Notes under the pieces: generated by a model | Told to the model about the DNA's origin: nothing | The model's input: the letters and a program-made list of their open reading frames with translations, nothing else | The model's database searches: none | Position numbers and translations under genes: made by a program | NCBI RefSeq assembly: GCF_002355375.1 | Contig: NZ_AP017312.1 | Span: forward strand, 1,133,001-1,197,000 | Reading direction: 5' to 3' | Source: Aneurinibacillus soli | Lineage (GTDB): Bacteria > Bacillota > Bacilli > Aneurinibacillales > Aneurinibacillaceae | DNA length: 64,000 nt | Part shown: one piece after another, positions 17,466 to 59,345 of the stretch | How positions within the stretch are numbered: position 1 is the first letter of the stretch | Layout: every line of letters begins with the position of its first letter

Positions 17466-17540
17466 TCAAGCAGACTCCAACCGCTCAATTAAGGTTACCA
17501 AGTCGGCAGAGGCTGCACCGGATATTGGCGAGTCTGAGTA
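17466..17540 (+). ncRNA. L21 ribosomal protein leader
   Basis: Cis-regulatory leader of Firmicute rplU operons. The closing helix CAGACTC (17471-17477) pairs exactly with GAGTCTG (17530-17536) and continues with CCAA/TTGG. Within it lies the unpaired, purine-rich core around GGTTACCAAGTCGGCAGAGG, which as I recall resembles the L21 leader consensus. It sits 19 bases before the rplU start. It is thought to let L21 repress its own operon. Confidence 0.75.
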
Positions 17541-17558
17541 TATGGAGGAGGTGCAATT

Positions 17559-20511: not shown

Positions 20512-20756
20512 TATAAACAAAGTGTGGTGAGGGAGCCGGGAAGAGAGAATCCTGTCACTTCGGGTTGCTTGGCAGGGAAGCGGAGACTGGCCGCTCCAGA
20601 AGACATGCAGACTCGCCCGCAAAGTGCAGGCCAGGGAAGTATGACAGGGAAGAATTGCGGGCAAAGGCCCGTCTGCCTGCCTCCTTCCGCTGGGGAGAGC
20701 GCATACAAGGCGTTCCTTGATTCTCTCTTCCCGTCTCCTGACATACTTTGTTATAT
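20512..20756 (+). repeat. Structured palindromic repeat, copy A (plus orientation)
   Basis: First of six related intergenic elements. Ends are inverted (TATAAACAAAG / CTTTGTTATA). The outer arms pair almost fully: GGAGCCGGGAAGAGAGAATC (from 20532) with GATTCTCTCTTCCCGTCTCC (ending 20740). An inner helix GCAGAC (20607-20612)/GTCTGC (20671-20676) leads through an asymmetric loop (CAAAGGCCC on the 3' side) to CCCGCAA (20616-20622)/TTGCGGG (20655-20661). A hairpin CCTG/CAGG precedes the middle. The TACGC block is degenerate here. No convincing gene. Small reading frames across it lack ribosome sites. Confidence 0.85.
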
Positions 20757-20823
20757 CCATTGCTAAACTAAGTGCGATCTGTGCCTGCTTTTTGACGCAG
20801 TGTAATCGCATAGATGTAATGTA

Positions 20824-20861
20824 GAGGGTGTTCTCATCATTGATGGGGATACCCTCTTTTT
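20824..20861 (+). terminator. Terminator between repeat A and the small membrane-protein gene
   Basis: GAGGGTGTTCTCATC and GATGGGGATACCCTC form an imperfect stem, followed by TTTTT. It probably ends transcripts from obg that cross copy A. Confidence 0.75.
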
Positions 20862-21024
20862 GTTGGCAAAATGAAAAGACGCCTTGATTGGCGTCATACA
20901 TAATCATCAGGTATACAACCCGATTACGTCCAAGTTTTTACTTCGTGCTCTCTTGCATAATTATCTGATCTATCAGCACACCTTTACATTATATGATAAA
21001 ATATGTAAAAAAAGGAGGTGTCAT

Positions 21025-21204
21025 GTGGACATTCAATTTGGAACACTTATCTTTCAGGTAATAATGCTTTTTATTTTTGTGGTACTGCCTATTAGCTTGT
21101 TAGTTTTTCTGATTCGCAAGCCTTTTAGAAAGCGAGATAACAAAATAGAATTATTAGAAAAACGTATAGAAAAGTTGGAAAATGAAATGAAAAATGGACA
21201 ATAG
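21025..21204 (+). CDS. Small membrane protein, DUF4083-like
   Basis: 59 residues: one membrane helix (about 8-30) followed by a basic, strongly coiled-coil tail (RKRDNKIELLEKRIEKLENEMKNG). This resembles small Bacillus DUF4083 proteins of unknown role; the assignment is by layout only. GTG 21025 is the start because AAAGGAGGTG ends 4 bases before it; upstream in-frame codons lack a ribosome site. By eye the gene is more AT-rich than its neighbours. It lies between inverted repeat copies A and B. Confidence 0.7.
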   Translation: MDIQFGTLIFQVIMLFIFVVLPISLLVFLIRKPFRKRDNKIELLEKRIEKLENEMKNGQ

Positions 21205-21355
21205 AATGGAGCTGCTCGCCTTCTAGTGGATGAAAAAACACAGGATGGTTTCTGGTTAAGATTTGATTTGTTCATACGTAGACGTTACCATTGTGTTTAA
21301 TGCCAATAAAGTAGTAAATAACATAGAGGAAAAAGGATTAAGGGGCGGCTTTCAC

Positions 21356-21952
21356 ATGGAACATCAGTTAGATTACCTACTTGCTCACTATGGTTATTTT
21401 GGAATTGTACTCGCTCTTGTAGGAGGCATTGTTGGTCTGCCTTTGCCTGATGAAATTGTGCTGACGTATGTAGGCTATAACATATATCAGGGAAAGATGC
21501 TGTATGCACTGTCAGTAGTAAGCGCTGTTATAGGTGCGCTCACTGGAATTACGATTAGCTATTTGTTGGGGATAAAGTTAGGTAGCCCTTTCCTGAAAAA
21601 GTTTGGTCCTAAGATTCACATTACAGAAAAGAAAATAGAGCGTACGCAAGCACTCTTCAATAAATTTGGTCCATTTCTGCTCTTTATCGGCTATTTCATT
21701 CCTGGCGTAAGGCATGTTACTGCTTATTTAGCAGGTATTTCCTGTTTGGGATTTCGTAAATTTGCTCTTTACGCGTATGCAGGAGGGGTATTGTGGATTT
21801 TTACTTTTATCACATTGGGAAGAGTATTGGGGCATGATTGGAAAAAAGCAGAACACTATATCCATCCGAATGGTGGTCTACTTGTTATACTGGTTGTAGT
21901 GTTGGTTTTCCTTGTTTTTCTCTATCGCAAGAGGAAGAAAAGGAGTTTGTAA
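21356..21952 (+). CDS. DedA-family membrane protein
   Basis: DedA/SNARE-associated family (PF09335 type); members act in undecaprenyl-phosphate or phospholipid recycling across the membrane. It has 198 residues with a re-entrant N-terminal region (GGIVGLPLPDEIVLTYVG), the conserved FIPGVRHVTAYLAG motif (about 120-133), and two C-terminal helices ending in a basic tail. Start ATG 21356 follows AAGGGGCGG; the longer frame from 21263 has no ribosome site. AT-rich relative to flanking genes, and absent from this position in B. subtilis, so likely an insertion between obg and pheB. Confidence 0.85.
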   Translation: MEHQLDYLLAHYGYFGIVLALVGGIVGLPLPDEIVLTYVGYNIYQGKMLYALSVVSAVIGALTGITISYLLGIKLGSPFLKKFGPKIHITEKKIERTQALFNKFGPFLLFIGYFIPGVRHVTAYLAGISCLGFRKFALYAYAGGVLWIFTFITLGRVLGHDWKKAEHYIHPNGGLLVILVVVLVFLVFLYRKRKKRSL

Positions 21953-21987
21953 TTCATAAAAGCGTAAAGTGAACCATGATAAAGAAC

Positions 21988-22018
21988 AGCCAGCTCACAT
22001 CGAAGCTGGCTTGTTTTT
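21988..22018 (+). terminator. Terminator after the DedA gene
   Basis: AGCCAGCT (21988-21995) and AGCTGGCT (22004-22011) followed by TGTTTTTG. Confidence 0.82.
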
Positions 22019-22068
22019 GTAGTAGTTGTTTTTCATCGGAGCTTAGACATTCAAAACAGAGTGAAGTA

Positions 22069-22313
22069 TAAAAACGAAAGCTTGCGCTGGGAGACGGGAG
22101 TGGAAATTAGCGAAACATTGTACGCGACAACCTAGCGGAAGGAGAGAAGCAGACGGGCTTTTGTCCGCAATCTACTTCTTTAGCATGCCTTCGGAAGCGC
22201 TTTGCGGACGAGTCTGCAGCTCTCCTGAAGCGGACAGTCTATACTTCCCCGCAGAGCGTACGTAGTGCCGATCATTTTCACTCCCGGCTCCCCACCACAA
22301 ACTATCGCTTTAC
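22069..22313 (-). repeat. Structured palindromic repeat, copy B (minus orientation)
   Basis: Same family as copy A, inverted. On the plus strand: outer arms GGAGACGGGAGTGGAAATTAGC (from 22090) with GATCATTTTCACTCCCGGCTCC (ending 22291); helix GCAGAC (22149-22154)/GTCTGC (22212-22217); central helix TCCGCAA (22164-22170)/TTGCGGA (22202-22208), a compensatory variant of CCCGCAA/TTGCGGG in copy A; long-range GTACGC/GCGTAC (near 22130 and 22256). Copies A and B face each other and enclose the two AT-rich genes. Confidence 0.85.
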
Positions 22314-43329: not shown

Positions 43330-44236
43330 TCAGAAGTTTGATGAGTACAAGCTTGACTTTGTTAAGCACCGCAAGAAATATTTTATCGTATCACTTGTTC
43401 TGATCGTAGCCGGGATCATCTCTCTTTTGACAATGGGATTAAATCTTGGCGTTGACTTCAAGAGTGGAACGCGTGTGCAGGTGCAAATCGGTAAAACGTT
43501 CCAGGAAGACGAAGTGAAGCAGATCGTCGAGAAGACAGGGCTTAAAACGGGGAGTGTAACGACAGCTGGAGATAAGAAGGATATGGCGGTTATTCAGTTT
43601 GCGGAGCCGATTCACAAGGATGAATTTGCGAAGTTGACCAAAGCTGTGCAGGATAAGTATGGAAAAAACATTTCCTTACAGGAAAGTACCGTAAATCCGA
43701 TCATCAGTCGTGAGCTGGCGCGTTCGGCAGTGTACTCGATTCTTATTGCGTCCGTGTTCATTGTGCTCTACATTACGATTCGCTTCGAGTTCCGTTTTGC
43801 GTTCTCATCCATTCTGGCGCTGCTGCATAACGTGTTCCTCGTCATCACGATTTTCAGCCTGTTCCAAATTGAAGTCGATCTGCCGTTCATTGCGGGGATC
43901 TTGACCATCGTCGGGTATTCGATTCACGATAACATCATCATTTTTGACCGGATTCGCGATAACTTGAAACACGCGAAGCTGAAATCGACTCAGGATATTG
44001 AAGACCTGGTCAATTATAGTATTGGACAAACATTGGCGCGTTCGATTAATACTGTCTTGACAGTTGTCATCTGCGCACTGGCCCTGTATATTTTCGGTGG
44101 GGAGAGCATCCGCAACTTTATGCTGGCGCTTATCATCGGCCTGATCTTCGGGGCATACTCTTCCATCTTCATTGCCAGTCAGATCTGGGTGTCATGGCGT
44201 GAACGTGATTTTAAAAAGCAAAAAAAGGTTGCGTAG
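43319..44236 (+). CDS. secF: Protein translocase subunit SecF
   Basis: Partner of SecD. It has 305 residues and six helices with GVDFKSGTRVQV, and TIVGYSIHDNIIIFDRIRDNL. Start at GTG 43319 with AAAGGAG 10 bases upstream; GTG 43310 is too close to it. It overlaps the secD end by 11 bp, so the two are translated in concert. B. subtilis has a fused secDF; here they are separate. Confidence 0.92.
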   Translation: MNYNQKFDEYKLDFVKHRKKYFIVSLVLIVAGIISLLTMGLNLGVDFKSGTRVQVQIGKTFQEDEVKQIVEKTGLKTGSVTTAGDKKDMAVIQFAEPIHKDEFAKLTKAVQDKYGKNISLQESTVNPIISRELARSAVYSILIASVFIVLYITIRFEFRFAFSSILALLHNVFLVITIFSLFQIEVDLPFIAGILTIVGYSIHDNIIIFDRIRDNLKHAKLKSTQDIEDLVNYSIGQTLARSINTVLTVVICALALYIFGGESIRNFMLALIIGLIFGAYSSIFIASQIWVSWRERDFKKQKKVA

Positions 44237-44252
44237 TAGAATAGCCGTATAC

Positions 44253-44290
44253 AAAAGCTGTCCCATGAGCGAGTGGGGCAGCTATTTTTT
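44253..44290 (+). terminator. Terminator after secF
   Basis: AGCTGTCCC (44255-44263) and GGGGCAGCT (44274-44282) followed by A and seven T. Confidence 0.88.
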
Positions 44291-44294
44291 TGTG

Positions 44295-44540
44295 GAATCG
44301 ACAACGTGTAGTGGTGGGAGTGAGAGAAGGGATGAGCCGTTCGCTTGATTACGCTTGCAGGGAAGTGGGGGCTGTCCGCTCTGGGAGCTCGACGAACTCG
44401 CCCGCAAAGAAAGCTTACGATGTCGATTCACCGAAGGATTGCGGGCAAAGGCCCGTTCGTCGTTCTCCCTCCGCTGAGTAGTCGCGTAAAGGCGCTCTCT
44501 TACTCATCCCTTCTTCCCCCCTCCCAACAACGTTTGGATT
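44295..44540 (+). repeat. Structured palindromic repeat, copy C (plus orientation)
   Basis: Member of the family described at copy A. Ends: GAATCGACAACGT at the left and AACGTTTGGATTT at the right, related as inverted repeats. Helices: GACGAAC (44390-44396)/GTTCGTC (44454-44460), a compensatory variant of GCAGAC/GTCTGC; CCCGCAA (44400-44406)/TTGCGGG (44438-44444); long-range TTACGC (44348-44353)/GCGTAA (44483-44488), covarying with GTACGC/GCGTAC of other copies. Conserved unpaired CAAAGGCCCG follows the central helix. Gap 44541-44654 to copy D holds nothing else recognisable. Confidence 0.85.
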
Positions 44541-44654
44541 TACAAAAGCTCGTTCAACGTAAGGGATGATTCACACGGTATTTGGTGGCTTTAGCGAAAG
44601 GAATTAGTTGTTTTTTTACCTGCATAGCGAAGCCCAATATTCCTATTGTTTGGC

Positions 44655-44820
44655 GGTTGTCTGTCAAAATTCGGGTAGGAGTGGAGGAGGAAGGTGCTGT
44701 GGAACGCTTTTACGCGATTACCTAGCGGAAGGGGACAGTCTCTACTTCTTTGTAAGCGTAATGAAGTGACAAAGCGCCTTCCTCCTCCGCTCCTCCACCG
44801 CACTTTTGAGCCAGACAACC
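44655..44820 (-). repeat. Structured palindromic repeat, copy D (minus, internally deleted)
   Basis: Family member of only 166 bp. Ends are an exact inverted repeat GGTTGTCTG (44655-44663)/CAGACAACC (44812-44820). Outer arms GTGGAGGAGGAAGGTGCT (from 44681) and AGCGCCTTCCTCCTCCGC (ending 44790) pair. Long-range TTACGC (44710-44715)/GCGTAA (44756-44761) remains. The central region with the two inner hairpin helices and the CAAAGGCCCG block is missing. A helix CTTTGT/ACAAAG retains the variable 5' hairpin. Confidence 0.8.
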
Positions 44821-44830
44821 CCAAAAGCAG

Positions 44831-44860
44831 TTGCCCCTATTTTCTTGTGTCCTGTATAAT
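44831..44860 (+). promoter_or_regulatory. Promoter of recJ-apt
   Basis: TTGCCC (44831-44836), 18-bp spacer, TATAAT (44855-44860), 30 bases before the recJ start. Begins 10 bp beyond repeat copy D. Confidence 0.6.
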
Positions 44861-44890
44861 GAACAAGTGTTTAAGAAGGGTGGGAGAAAC

Positions 44891-47233
44891 GTGCTTAAAT
44901 CGAAAACCCGCTGGAAGACGAAAGCAAATAACGAAGCGGCCGTACAAACGCTTGCACAGACATTACGCATTTCCCCGTTGCTTGCGCATCTGCTCGTTGG
45001 GCGCGAGATCGATACACCTGAGAAGGCAGAGCGGTTTCTTGGTGGAAGTGCCGAAGACTTATATGACCCGTTCCTGCTTGATGGTATGGAGAAGGCGATT
45101 GCCCGTGTGCGTGAAGCGATTGAGATTGGGGAGCCGATTTTAATCTATGGCGATTATGATGCCGATGGCGTGACAAGTACAAGCATTATGGTGCACACGC
45201 TACGGATGGCAGGCGCTGTGTTTCAATATTACATACCGAATCGTTTTACAGAAGGATACGGTTTGAATGAAGAGGCGCTGGTCAAGGCAGCGGAGAACGG
45301 ATTCGGTGTGGTTGTCACGGTTGATACTGGGATTAGTGCGGTGAAGGAAGCTGAAACAGCAAAAGAGCTGGGCATTGATCTGATTATTACGGACCATCAC
45401 GAACCGCCAGAAACAATTCCGGATGCATACGCGGTCATTAATCCGAAAAAGCCAGGCTGTCCGTATCCGTTCGATATGCTCGCAGGTGCCGGGGTCGCGT
45501 TCAAGTTCGCGCATGCGCTGCTCGACGATATTCCGCATCATCTGCTGGAGATCGCAGCGATTGGTACGATTGCCGATCTGGTGCCGCTTGTGGATGAGAA
45601 TCGGCTGATTGCCAGACTTGGTCTGCAAGCACTCGACCGTTCAGTGAATCCGGGCGTCCAGGCGCTCAAAAAAGTATGTGGCATCGAAGGCAAAGTATCA
45701 GCGTATCATATCGGCTTCGGGATGGGGCCGCGTATTAATGCGACAGGTCGCCTGGAGACAGCAGATCGTGCTGTGAAGATGTTTATTACGAACAATCCAG
45801 AAGAAGCGGAGCGTTATGCACAGGAGCTTGACGAACTGAATAAGGAGCGGCAGGAACTGGTGGAAACGATTGCAGCCGAAGCGGAACAGCTCGTGCTGGC
45901 CATGCCGGATGAGCAGACGAATGTCATTGTCGTCGCACAAGAAGGGTGGAATGAAGGGGTCATCGGGATTGTCGCTTCTCGTTTGGTAGAGCGTTTCTAC
46001 CGTCCAGCCATCGTATTAAGCATCAACCGGGAACACAGCAAGGCCAAAGGCTCGGCCCGTAGCATTGCGGGGTTTAATATGTACGGGGCACTGACCGAAT
46101 GCGCGGACATCCTGCCGCATTATGGCGGGCATCCGATGGCAGCTGGTATGACACTTGCGGAAGAGAACGTGGACGCGCTGCGCCGTCGCTTGAATACACT
46201 GGCACAGGAATGGCTAACAGACGAGGATTATATCCCGATTACGAAGGTGGATGCGGTCTGTACACTCGAAGAAGCGAATCTCCAGACGATTGAGCAGATT
46301 GAGCGTATGGCACCGTTCGGCATCGGCAACCCGAGTCCGCGCATTGTCATGGAAGGTGTTGAGATTGCCGATCTGCGTATTATTGGCAAAGATGAGAATC
46401 ATATCAAATGTCAGTTCCGTCAGGATGGCGTGAAGCTCGACGGCATCGGATTTAAAATGGCCGACATCGTGCCGGAACTGCCGACACAAGGAGAAGTGAA
46501 TGTGGTTGGCGAATTATCTGTTAATGAATGGAATAATACCCGCCGCCCACAGTTTATCCTGAAAGATATTAGTGTACCGGGCATGCAGATTTTTGACTGG
46601 CGAGGTGCACGCAGTAAAGAAGAGAAGCTGAGTCTGCTTGAAGAAGCAGGACAGCCGGTGCGTATAGTGGCGTTCCGGGAGCACAATCAGCAGGCATTCT
46701 CCCGCATTCTCCCGACATTCTCTAATCTTGTGACAGCAGGAGATGCACATACACAGGTTGTATTGTACGATCTACCTGCTTCCAGGGAAGAACTGGAGAC
46801 AGCACTTGCCAGACATCCAGACGTAGATCGTCTGTACTGTTTGTTTGGAGAAGAGCCGACGTCTTTGCCATCTATTCCAACGCATCAGCAGTTTAAAGAC
46901 GTGTACAAAACGGTATATCAGCATAAAGCAGTGGCGTATGCTGATGTGAAGCATCTTGCGCAGGCGAAAAAATTGACACCGTCTGCCACTCAATTCATTT
47001 TGTCTGTCTTTACCGAGCTTGCGTTTCTGGAGGACACTGGACGAGAATACCGCTTAGCGGCAAACCCGGCCAAAAAAGATCTGACAGCGTCCACGCTTTA
47101 CAGGCAGCAGCAGTCGGCACTCGAAGTAGAAACTGAATTACTATATTCCTCATACCAATCACTGTGCGCATTTCTGCGCTCGCATATGGCGGACAGCGCA
47201 CCAAATAAGGAGATAACTACTCATGGATTTTAA
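44891..47233 (+). CDS. recJ: Single-stranded-DNA-specific exonuclease RecJ
   Basis: 5'-3' exonuclease of recombination and repair. It has 780 residues: DHH domain with [16 protein letters not shown] and [12 protein letters not shown]1 domain with NGR-type [10 protein letters not shown] and [10 protein letters not shown] fold; and a Firmicute-specific C-terminal domain (about 570-780). GTG 44891 chosen because GGGTGGGAG is 6 bases before it; upstream frame has no signal. Overlaps apt by 11 bp. Confidence 0.95.
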
Positions 47234-47738
47234 AGAAAAGATTCGCGTGATCCTCGACTACCCACAAGAGGGCATCCGCTTCAAAGATATTACCACTCTT
47301 CTGCAGGACGGCCCAACATACAAAGCGGCCATTCAAGAAATGGCCAAATTCGCAGCAGACAAACAGGTGGACATCGTAGTTGGTCCCGAAGCACGCGGCT
47401 TCGTTATCGGCTGCCCGCTTGCCATTGAACTCGGCGCAGGTTTCGCTCCCGTTCGTAAAAAAGGCAAGCTGCCGTACGAAACGATTCAGGCAGAATACAC
47501 ACTCGAATACGGAAAAGATGCGCTTGCGATGCACAAAGACGCGATCAAACCAGGTCAGCGTGTCCTGATTGCAGACGACTTGCTTGCTACAGGCGGCACG
47601 ATCCAGACGACGATTGATCTCGTGAAGCAGCTCGGCGGTGAAATCGTCGGTCTTGCGTTCCTGATCGAGCTGACATATGTGGGCGGTCGTGAAAAGATTG
47701 ACAGTGATTATGATATCTTCACGCTAGTGCAGTACTAA
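47223..47738 (+). CDS. apt: Adenine phosphoribosyltransferase
   Basis: Purine salvage: adenine plus PRPP gives AMP. It has 171 residues; [12 protein letters not shown] near 60 and PRPP loop [13 protein letters not shown] (about 118-130). AAGGAG precedes the ATG, inside the recJ end. Upstream of relA as in Bacilli. Confidence 0.97.
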
Positions 47739-47785
47739 GGATAACAAAAGGCTTGATAGTCAGGCTTTCGTAGGGCAGATTGGTA

Positions 47786-48022
47786 TTTGTACAAAGTTTG
47801 GTGGGGGAGTAGAGAAGAGAGACACCTGTCACTTCGGTACGCTTACAGGGAAGCAAAAACAGGGCGCTCCAGGGAACATGCAAACTCGCCCACAAAAAGT
47901 CGTGATGCGTATTCAAAGAAGTTGTGGGCAAAGGCCCGTTCGCCTATTCCCTTCCGCTGGGCAGTCGCGTACAGGCGTTCCGTGGCGTCTCCCTTCTCCA
48001 CTCCCGACAACTTTTGTATAAA
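47786..48022 (+). repeat. Structured palindromic repeat, copy E (plus orientation)
   Basis: Family member with inverted ends (TTTGTACAAAG left, CTTTTGTATAAA right) and outer arms GGGGGAGTAGAGAAGAGAGA and its near-complement ending TCTCCCTTCTCCACTCCC. Helices: hairpin CCTGT/ACAGG (near 47825-47848); long-range GTACGC (47837-47842)/GCGTAC (47967-47972); central CCCACAA (47889-47895)/TTGTGGG (47922-47928), compensatory to CCCGCAA/TTGCGGG. GCAAAC (47880-47885)/GTTCGC (47938-47943) has one mismatch. CAAAGGCCCG is conserved. No gene here. Confidence 0.85.
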
Positions 48023-48089
48023 ACCCATTTTGCACAAACTTTGATACAAGCCAAAGTTATAACTTCTATATGGTATTGGATATACAGTA

Positions 48090-48127
48090 AAAAGAGCTTC
48101 TTTTGCAGTTGCAAAAGAAGCTCTTTT
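48090..48127. terminator. Perfect inverted repeat between copies E and F
   Basis: AAAAGAGCTTCTTTTGCA (48090-48107) and TGCAAAAGAAGCTCTTTT (48110-48127) pair over 18 bp with a 2-nt centre. With AAAA and TTTT ends this acts as a strong terminator in either direction, ending transcripts that cross copy E. Confidence 0.8.
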
Positions 48128-48167
48128 AAAATCAATTGGAGCAAAGAGTGATGATTTTTTCTTTCAG

Positions 48168-48408
48168 ATAACACAAAAGCTATGCAGAAGCGTGGAAGGG
48201 AGGAGCAATGAACGCCTGTACGCGACCCCTCAGCGGAGGGAGAGCGGCGAACGTGCTTTTGCCCACAATGCTTCGATGTATATACATCGTGGGCTTCTTT
48301 TGTGGGCGAGTTCGCTGGTCTTCTGGAGCGGACAGTTCTGCTTCACTGAAGAGCGTACCAAAGTGAATGCTCCTCCCTTCCACGCTTCTCCACTACACTT
48401 TGTGTAAT
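48168..48408 (-). repeat. Structured palindromic repeat, copy F (minus orientation)
   Basis: Family member in inverse orientation. Ends ATAACACAAAAGC and its counterpart ACTTTGTGTAAT. Arms GCAGAAGCGTGGAAGGGAGG (from 48184) pair with CCTCCCTTCCACGCTTCTCC (ending 48390). GCGAAC (48247-48252)/GTTCGC (48310-48315); CCCACAA (48262-48268)/TTGTGGG (48300-48306); GTACGC (48218-48223)/GCGTAC (48353-48358). The hairpin tip holds a perfect 16-bp palindrome at 48274-48289. Confidence 0.85.
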
Positions 48409-48431
48409 ATCAAACCAGAAAAAAGCTCCTC

Positions 48432-48460
48432 TTGACCTCCGTTTCCCGTTCTAACATAAT
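48432..48460 (+). promoter_or_regulatory. Promoter of relA-dtd
   Basis: TTGACC (48432-48437), 17-bp spacer, CATAAT (48455-48460), each one mismatch from consensus; 43 bases before relA. Confidence 0.65.
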
Positions 48461-48502
48461 AAAAGGTAATATTCCAGGGGAGTGTTAAAGGAGACAAGAT
48501 TC

Positions 48503-59148: not shown

Positions 59149-59345
59149 CAAACAGCATAGAGCCCTGCAATGTACGTGAATGCCCGATTGTTTTGTACCA
59201 ACAGAGTTATTACGGGAGATCGGAGTTCCGGTAAGGCACAGATGCCGCCACCAAGTAGCGGACCTGCAAGCTACCGGGTAGATTGCCCACCTGCGCGAGC
59301 AGGTTCAAAACACCGGCGCACGGCATTTTGGGGCTCTTTGCTTGC
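59149..59345 (+). ncRNA. 6S RNA (bsrA-like)
   Basis: Non-coding gap of 372 bp between aspS and tcdA, where B. subtilis encodes 6S-1 RNA in the aspS-yrvM interval. The ends close as AGAGCCC (59159-59165) with GGGGCTCT (59330-59337), and GAATGCC with GGCATT. A large central region and a hairpin ACCTGC-GCGA-GCAGGT lie inside. 6S RNA traps sigma-A RNA polymerase in stationary phase. Identification rests on position, size and closing helix, not on a covariance search. The exact 3' end is unknown. Confidence 0.75.

What the first reader, a model, noticed from the sequence alone, without database searches (positions are those of the whole stretch)
44390..48315. Compensatory base changes in three helices of the repeat family
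The central helix is CCCGCAA/TTGCGGG in A and C, TCCGCAA/TTGCGGA in B, and CCCACAA/TTGTGGG in E and F. The second helix is GCAGAC/GTCTGC in A and B, GACGAAC/GTTCGTC in C, GCGAAC/GTTCGC in F. The long-range helix is GTACGC/GCGTAC in B, E, F and TTACGC/GCGTAA in C and D. Both sides change together, while the 3' loop CAAAGGCCCG (CAAAAGC in B and F) hardly changes. This is the pattern of a conserved fold with a conserved unpaired motif.
Basis: seen in the sequence. Interest (0 to 1): 0.75.

Follow-up and report, generated by a model that had tools for sequence, protein, structure and literature searches.

The report
Folded mobile repeats in gene terminators
These repeats belong to a family of mobile, non-coding DNA pieces that keep one particular single-strand fold in scattered relatives across the Bacillus class, and in one relative they insert into the hairpins that end genes and double them.

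Summary
With 205 near-full copies from three congeners, a tree-based covariation test gives 8 significant column pairs: six in the outer arm, one in the central helix, one in the long-range helix.

The copies are halves of a ~690-nt unit: C-type, spacer, inverted E-type, with terminator-like hairpins outside. The genome gave 180 HMM hits; units come and go between two close species.

A covariance model finds the same fold in 18 of 151 genomes, own included, with 28-107 copies in each of six. No Rfam match. In one distant genome, 18 of 22 copies with both ends recognised (18 of 37 read) lie between direct repeats, mostly whole terminator-like hairpins: a target duplication.

Best reading: a non-autonomous mobile repeat, recognised through one folded strand and settling at terminators. 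The enzyme, and whether RNA or ssDNA folds, are unknown. bcr1, REPINs and group IIC introns are nearest; none was shown to be the same.

The parts
20516..20750 (+).
   Evidence: HMM hit; covariance-model hit, 136.8 bits on minus; long-range helix broken in this copy
22075..22299 (-). Copy B, inverted partner of A (1.3 kb between, with an ORF at 21263-21952 that looks DedA-like by eye); folded core on plus at 22116-22268
   Evidence: model hit 122.4 bits
44256..44291 (+). Outer terminator-like hairpin AGCTGTCCC..GGGGCAGCT and T-run, left end of the C/D unit
   Evidence: sequence; the consensus of 48 units carries such a hairpin at both ends
44298..44539 (+). Copy C (C-type half); folded core on minus at 44341-44493
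   Evidence: model hit 156.1 bits
44665..44808 (-). Copy D (inverted half, central hairpin deleted); remaining core on plus at 44706-44769
   Evidence: split HMM hits 4-80 and 164-236; model hit 54.3 bits
47790..48017 (+). Copy E; folded core on minus at 47829-47976
   Evidence: model hit 141.1 bits
48174..48404 (-). Copy F, inverted partner of E; folded core on plus at 48214-48366
   Evidence: model hit 153.4 bits
44401..44445 (-). Central helix of copy C (CCCGCAA 44401-44407 with TTGCGGG 44439-44445); longer on the folded minus strand
48090..48127 (.). Perfect 18-bp inverted repeat with A/T flanks in the spacer between E and F, terminator-like
   Evidence: inverted repeat I10

Best explanation
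The repeats are halves of a non-autonomous mobile repeat without a recognised gene of its own. In this genus two halves of different subtype lie back to back as one ~690-nt unit that has multiplied between genes, mostly at gene 3' ends. I infer that an unknown enzyme acting in trans recognises the folded strand (RNA, or single-stranded DNA during replication) and places new copies at transcription terminators. In one distant genome the insertion splits a terminator and doubles its hairpin, which would put the element in the 3' UTR of a host gene and leave a terminator behind it. Shown: fold, strand bias, unit, gain and loss, range, hairpin duplication in one genome. Inferred: trans mobilisation, recognition of the fold, transcription.
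For: Fold: 8 significant pairs; 95.2% pairing, 0 of 500 shuffles as high; class-wide set 19 significant pairs, all in three helix registers. Strand: inner helices WC->A.C 170 events against WC->G.T 30; in unpaired columns rates are G>A 0.64, C>T 0.41, A>G 0.60, T>C 0.32. Gain and loss: of 25 G000 units placed in 20 chosen G006 stretches, 8 are present as unit or remnant and 17 absent, 11 of these with a G006 interval under 100 nt. Range: 18 of 151 genomes; 33, 88, 35, 66, 107 and 28 copies in six genomes. Target: 18 of 22 G054 copies with both ends recognised (18 of 37 read) share a 12-29-nt direct repeat across the element, with a stem of 7 bp or more on the right in 16 of the 18 (random 40-mers 16%). 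Ends: 107 matches to CAGNNTGNAGACAA in G054, control 1.
Against: No enzyme was found beside copies in the 25 clusters of flanking ORFs shown, judged by eye, and Y1 transposases do not track presence (two in G000, not beside a held copy; 12 matches in G001, which has no copies). No autonomous element with the same ends was recognised in the capped list of G054 places. Hairpin duplication is clear only in G054 and once in G096; at 86 G000/G006 units left and right flanks are no more alike than mismatched flanks (mean 9.8 against 9.6). No promoter-like site in the one unit scanned. Single-sequence folding does not settle the strand: C gives -99.3 as written and -103.2 on the complement, E and F were folded only as written. 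No expression data.
Confidence: 0.6

Rival explanations
1. A functional non-coding RNA or 3'-UTR element kept for the host, for instance an RNA stabiliser or terminator module, that spreads only slowly.
For: Unpaired motifs (AGCGGA, GGAGCGGACAGT) are conserved across six family codes; copies sit mostly at gene 3' ends (flank strands (+,-) 49, (+,+) 37, (-,-) 29, (-,+) 9, 1 unclear, of 125); in G050 8 of 8 copies have the folded strand on the strand of the gene on their 5' side.
Against: Copy number differs strongly and 133 of 151 genomes show none at that search's sensitivity; the neighbouring genes are varied; over six genomes orientation to the 5'-side gene is 33 same, 19 opposite, 3 unclear; units lie in either orientation to genes.
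Confidence: 0.2
2. A purely DNA-level palindrome: covariation comes from hairpin-templated repair or from cruciform function, without selection on one strand.
For: Six of the eight significant pairs are in the outer arm, where strand asymmetry is weak (A.C 136, G.T 68 events); internal deletions occur.
Against: Strong one-strand wobble bias in inner helices, conserved purine loops and covariation in inner helices across families; repair between arms should act on both strands alike.
Confidence: 0.08
3. An ordinary transposase-driven MITE of a known IS family whose internal fold is incidental.
For: TIR-like ends in G054, dispersed copies without a recognised gene, solo and deleted forms.
Against: The ends differ between lineages while the core is what is conserved, the opposite of what IS-derived MITEs show; no pair of these ends at IS spacing was recognised by eye in the lists for G000 and G054.
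Confidence: 0.12

Closest known systems
bcr1-bcr3 (group A repeats of the Bacillus cereus group)
   Same: High-copy intergenic repeats, called MITE-like and often part of UTRs or operon gaps (passages of PMC6542083 and PMC3446304); a stem-loop family, Bcr1, given as 167 nt with 31 copies, in earlier literature 147 nt with 12 (passage of PMC2267715)
   Different: BCR elements are described as restricted to the B. cereus group with TTTAT motifs; here paired units, a fold shared by six family codes, and hairpin duplication. No bcr1 sequence was fetched, so homology was not tested.
REPIN / BIME dimers with RAYT (IS200-like) transposases
   Same: Mobile unit made of two inverted, strand-specific hairpins of two subtypes; non-autonomous (REPIN features recalled)
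   Different: Several times larger (REPIN size recalled); no Y1/RAYT gene beside the held copies; several lineages carry mostly single copies
Group IIC introns
   Same: Settle at rho-independent terminator hairpins (recalled)
   Different: No Rfam intron match; the target hairpin is doubled, which intron insertion does not do (recalled)
IS110-family elements that use repeats as targets
   Same: An IS110-family element sits inside this repeat at one fixed position, as insertion sequences do in REP sequences (PMC1525189: search listing and start of abstract only)
   Different: The IS is a guest in the repeat, not its source

Membership tests
Any Rfam 15 family | Covariance-model match | tested here: not met
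   Window at gathering score: only 6S and L21 leader; 44200-48500 at E<=5: only microRNA models on the perfect hairpin at 48090; 20 distant loci at E<=1: only a c-di-AMP riboswitch outside the repeat
bcr1 repeats | Sequence match to bcr1 and TTTAT motif | not tested
   No bcr1 sequence fetched; features from passages only
REPIN/RAYT | Inverted pair of strand-specific hairpins | tested here: met
   69 of 74 and 22 of 22 close neighbours inverted; strand bias
REPIN/RAYT | Y1 transposase gene bordered by the repeat | tested here: not met
   2 Y1 genes in G000, neither beside a held copy; presence does not track the repeat in 7 congeners
MITE | Terminal inverted repeats | tested here: met
   G054: CAGACTGAAGACAA / CAGCGTGTAGACAA, 107 pattern matches against 1 in the control; G000 units carry inverted hairpins at both ends
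MITE | Target-site duplication | tested here: met
   G054: 18 of 22 copies with both ends recognised, 18 of 37 read; no excess at 86 G000/G006 units
MITE | Autonomous partner with the same ends | tested here: inconclusive
   None recognised by eye in a capped list of the 107 G054 places
Group II intron | Intron RNA domains or reverse transcriptase | tested here: not met
   No Rfam intron match in window or 20 distant loci; reverse transcriptase not searched

The most novel reading that the evidence does not exclude
A new class of mobile element in Bacilli that moves through a folded single strand and recognises its target by shape, a terminator hairpin of any sequence, cutting at the two feet of the hairpin. 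The whole hairpin is thereby doubled, the host gene keeps a terminator behind the insert, and the host's own promoter transcribes the element as 3' UTR.
Probability: 0.35. Interest if true: 0.9.

Novelty: new variant of a known kind. Interest (0 to 1): 0.72.

Why it matters
A repeat family at 28 to about 180 copies per genome in scattered lineages of one class, with a strand-specific fold and no Rfam entry, would add a large structured class to these genomes. If insertion by hairpin shape with hairpin duplication holds, it is a target choice that spares genes and terminators, and it makes the trans-acting enzyme findable. The covariance models give a direct handle for annotation.

Tried and rejected
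Riboswitch or known RNA: no Rfam match on the repeat. Y1/RAYT origin: Y1 genes not linked. Partner protein beside copies: 1079 ORFs within 2 kb of distant copies and 1.5 kb of G000 copies were clustered; of the 25 clusters shown the widest spans four of seven genomes (five loci), and none looked by eye like a transposase or recombinase except the inserted IS110 gene; I ran no family search on them. Divergent promoters in the spacer: none in the one unit scanned. Plasmid carriage: four distant-mode searches without a match; phages were not searched. Naming the hosts: the one genome contigs pattern scan gave two single matches in unrelated bacteria, which I take for chance and did not inspect; the tool leaves out near genomes. 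Range beyond the class: model R2 on 398 genomes of the phylum found only the own genome, but with 8 candidates scored per genome this is a weak negative. Direct duplication at G000/G006 units: not seen. Solo outer hairpins as an independent repeat: left open. The unfitted MAFFT alignment of 36 distant copies gave one significant pair only, so the class-wide statistics rest on model-fitted alignments; there two measures were less extreme (pairs changed on both sides 28 against 25.2, 2 of 500 shuffles as high; pair types 83 against 76.7, 19 of 500).

Rows dropped: the covariation set used 205 of 242 kept hits (span of at least 225 model positions); A1 used 59 of these, filtered by gaps and below 83% identity; 12 of 137 places lacked 1-kb flanks; 16 of 82 convergent pairs had an untyped half; 6 of 54 long-spacer units were not oriented. 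The 20 G006 stretches were chosen mainly where no G006 copy was known yet, so absence is over-represented; G000 units without both flanks there were not counted.
Full report
OBSERVATION. D has lost the central hairpin.

COPIES AND UNIT. The window lies in an unnamed 4.1-Mb genome (G000). Two DNA queries and one pattern located places; the pattern GGGCAAARGCCCGT with up to 2 mismatches matched 108+96 times, its reversed control 33+21. In the stretches fetched, an HMM gives 180 hits in G000 (154 near full) and 53 in the congener G006 (50 near full); three G000 copies are counted twice as split hits, and unfetched copies are not counted. Two subtypes differ at the central pair: C-type CCCGCAA/TTGCGGG and E-type CCCACAA/TTGTGGG. 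Of 66 units with both halves typed, 62 are C/E heterodimers, 3 are E/E and 1 is C/C. A consensus of 48 of 54 units with a 105-125-nt spacer shows the order: hairpin GAGGCTGTC..GACAGC with T-run, C-type half, spacer, inverted E-type half, A-run and hairpin. Of 125 places with both 1-kb flanks, the longest flanking open frames point (+,-) in 49, (+,+) in 37, (-,-) in 29, (-,+) in 9, and 1 is unclear. So divergent promoter regions are rare sites.

COVARIATION. On 205 near-full copies (152 G000, 49 G006, 4 G005; mean identity 0.69) I ran a G-test with average-product correction against 20 null alignments that redistribute the inferred substitutions on the tree. Eight pairs pass E<0.05, all of them standard pairs: six in the outer arm, one in the central helix, one in the long-range helix. 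The best second-helix pair reaches only E=0.25. On 59 diverse cores, read on the complement, RNAalifold gives 31 pairs, 23 with changes on both sides. That structure pairs in 95.2% of cells (shuffled 86.6%), covariation score 0.357 against 0.202, 0 of 500 shuffles as high, and partner sliding lowers pairing to 30-47%.

WHICH STRAND FOLDS. Counted as events on the tree, Watson-Crick to A.C is 170 and to G.T is 30 in the four inner helices, 136 to 68 in the outer arm. In unpaired columns the rates are G>A 0.64, C>T 0.41, A>G 0.60 and T>C 0.32, so mutation bias explains only part. A.C on one strand is G.U on the other. RNAalifold on the 205 copies agrees: -63 on the complement, -29 as written. 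Single sequences do not settle it: C gives -99.3 as written and -103.2 on the complement; E (-87.9) and F (-110.4) were folded only as written. On the complement the central helix is UUGCCCRCAA/UUGYGGGCGA: nine pairs in the model, with U.G in 44 of 59 sequences at its foot, and a tenth, U-A, in 173 of 204 copies. The second helix follows directly on one side, with GGGCYU bulged on the other. This is the largest correction to the finding.

CLASS-WIDE FAMILY. Model R1 was searched in 151 genomes, own included: 18 have matches at E<=0.01, from 13 of 81 genera and family codes f1, f18, f23, f24, f26 and f30. Loci from these genomes keep CCCAGCGGA, GGAGCGGACAGT and CTTC-TGC while the helices change. 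In 55 distinct distant copies from six genomes 95.2% of cells pair against 62.3% shuffled, score 0.678 against 0.186, 0 of 500 as high; two further measures were less extreme (2 and 19 of 500) (this alignment is fitted to the model). A tree-null test on 55 distinct sequences of A5, which include the six window copies, gives 19 significant pairs, all in three helix registers of the structure; 17 of them pair in at least 85% of sequences. An unfitted alignment of 36 distant copies gives one pair. A GC/GC step, kept in 54 of 54 and 53 of 54 cells at its two pairs, lies next to a GGA on both strands. Model R2 counts 33, 88, 35, 66, 107 and 28 copies in G007, G036, G050, G054, G107 and G136. In a phylum-wide sample of 398 genomes only the own genome matched, with 8 candidates scored per genome. 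Close pairs in distant genomes often have the folded strands pointing apart, as here (L212, L216, L246-L249, L252, L289); L265, L271 and an array of three in G054 are tandem. No Rfam family matches the repeat.

GAIN AND LOSS. Fourteen G006 places match G000 places on both flanks. Of 25 G000 units whose flanks both fall in 20 chosen G006 stretches, 8 are present as unit or remnant and 17 absent; 11 of the absent ones have a G006 interval under 100 nt. Five of these hold a strong plain hairpin (567647, 700225, 1283042, 2773992, 3148410; stems 10-17), two hold one solo copy of the unit's own outer hairpin type (2800750, 3500864), and one (3210568) holds only the joined ends of the element. Stems of 7 or more are present in 9 of 11, but also in 53% of random stretches, so that count alone says little; at 1283042 G000 keeps the plain terminator beside the unit. 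At recJ, G000 and G006 share the C/D unit with different internal deletions, and the 12 other RecJ loci held show no hit.

TARGET. In G054 the unit ends are CAGACTGAAGACAA and, inverted, CAGCGTGTAGACAA; CAGNNTGNAGACAA matches 51+56 times, control 1+0. Of 37 copies read, the script recognised both ends in 22, and in 18 of these the sequences outside the left end and outside the right end share a direct repeat of 12-29 nt. In 16 of the 18 the right-hand copy has a stem of 7 bp or more; random 40-mers of the same loci have one in 16%. Many have an A-run before the left copy and a T-run after the right one, as bidirectional terminators do. Two of the 18 are the tandem pair L265, which share a hairpin. 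Of the other four copies, one has a similar hairpin with inverted loop, one has different hairpins on the two sides, and two share nothing. Mismatched flanks within genomes reach a score of 18 or more in 5% of 438 cases, own flanks in 11 of 62 across all genomes. One copy in G096 shows the same with one mismatch. The 86 G000/G006 units show no excess, so there the duplication is either decayed or absent. Consequence, inferred: the left hairpin loses its T-run, transcription continues through the element and ends at the right hairpin.

A GUEST ELEMENT. Seven copies in G000 are cut at the same column by an insert with identical end. It encodes an IS110-family transposase; in the four loci read through, both halves flank a 1,643-nt insert.

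MECHANISM. The evidence favours a non-autonomous mobile repeat whose conserved part is the folded core, not the ends. That the fold is read by a protein is inferred from conserved, apparently non-canonical loops; that it acts as RNA rather than ssDNA is undecided, since wobble pairs are tolerated in both. No linked enzyme was found.

LITERATURE. Nearest in print: bcr1-bcr18 (passages read in PMC6542083 and PMC3446304; table passages in PMC2267715). Searches on MITEs in Geobacillus or Paenibacillus, on structured RNAs with covariation, on target site duplication with rho-independent terminator (0 papers), and on intrinsic terminator, stem-loop and related terms (12 of 21 listed) showed no title that describes these repeats or hairpin duplication by an insertion. 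REPIN and group IIC features are recalled.

Noticed in passing
G000:C1 at 553697, 1005941, 1451698, 2050769, 2915172, 3610317, 3617943: IS110-family element inserted at one fixed position of the repeat's central helix in seven copies; a natural case of an IS110 target in a multicopy repeat.
   Followed up: partly
window 48090-48127: Perfect 18-bp inverted repeat between E and F, a likely bidirectional terminator; it draws microRNA matches below gathering score in Rfam.
   Followed up: no
window 20751-22074: Copies A and B enclose 1.3 kb with an ORF (21263-21952, DedA-like by eye), unlike the close pairs.
   Followed up: no
G000:C1 3213810-3214803: A decayed insert that looks IS1595-like by eye (not searched) in the spacer of one unit.
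   Followed up: no
window 59159-59338 and 17469-17545: 6S RNA and L21 leader, both above gathering score.
   Followed up: no
G000:C1 1-478 kb: No copy of the repeat is listed in the first 478 kb of the contig in the capped lists.
   Followed up: no
L284 (G054:C1 655841-657900): Tandem array of three copies with equal model scores at 353-354-nt spacing.
   Followed up: no
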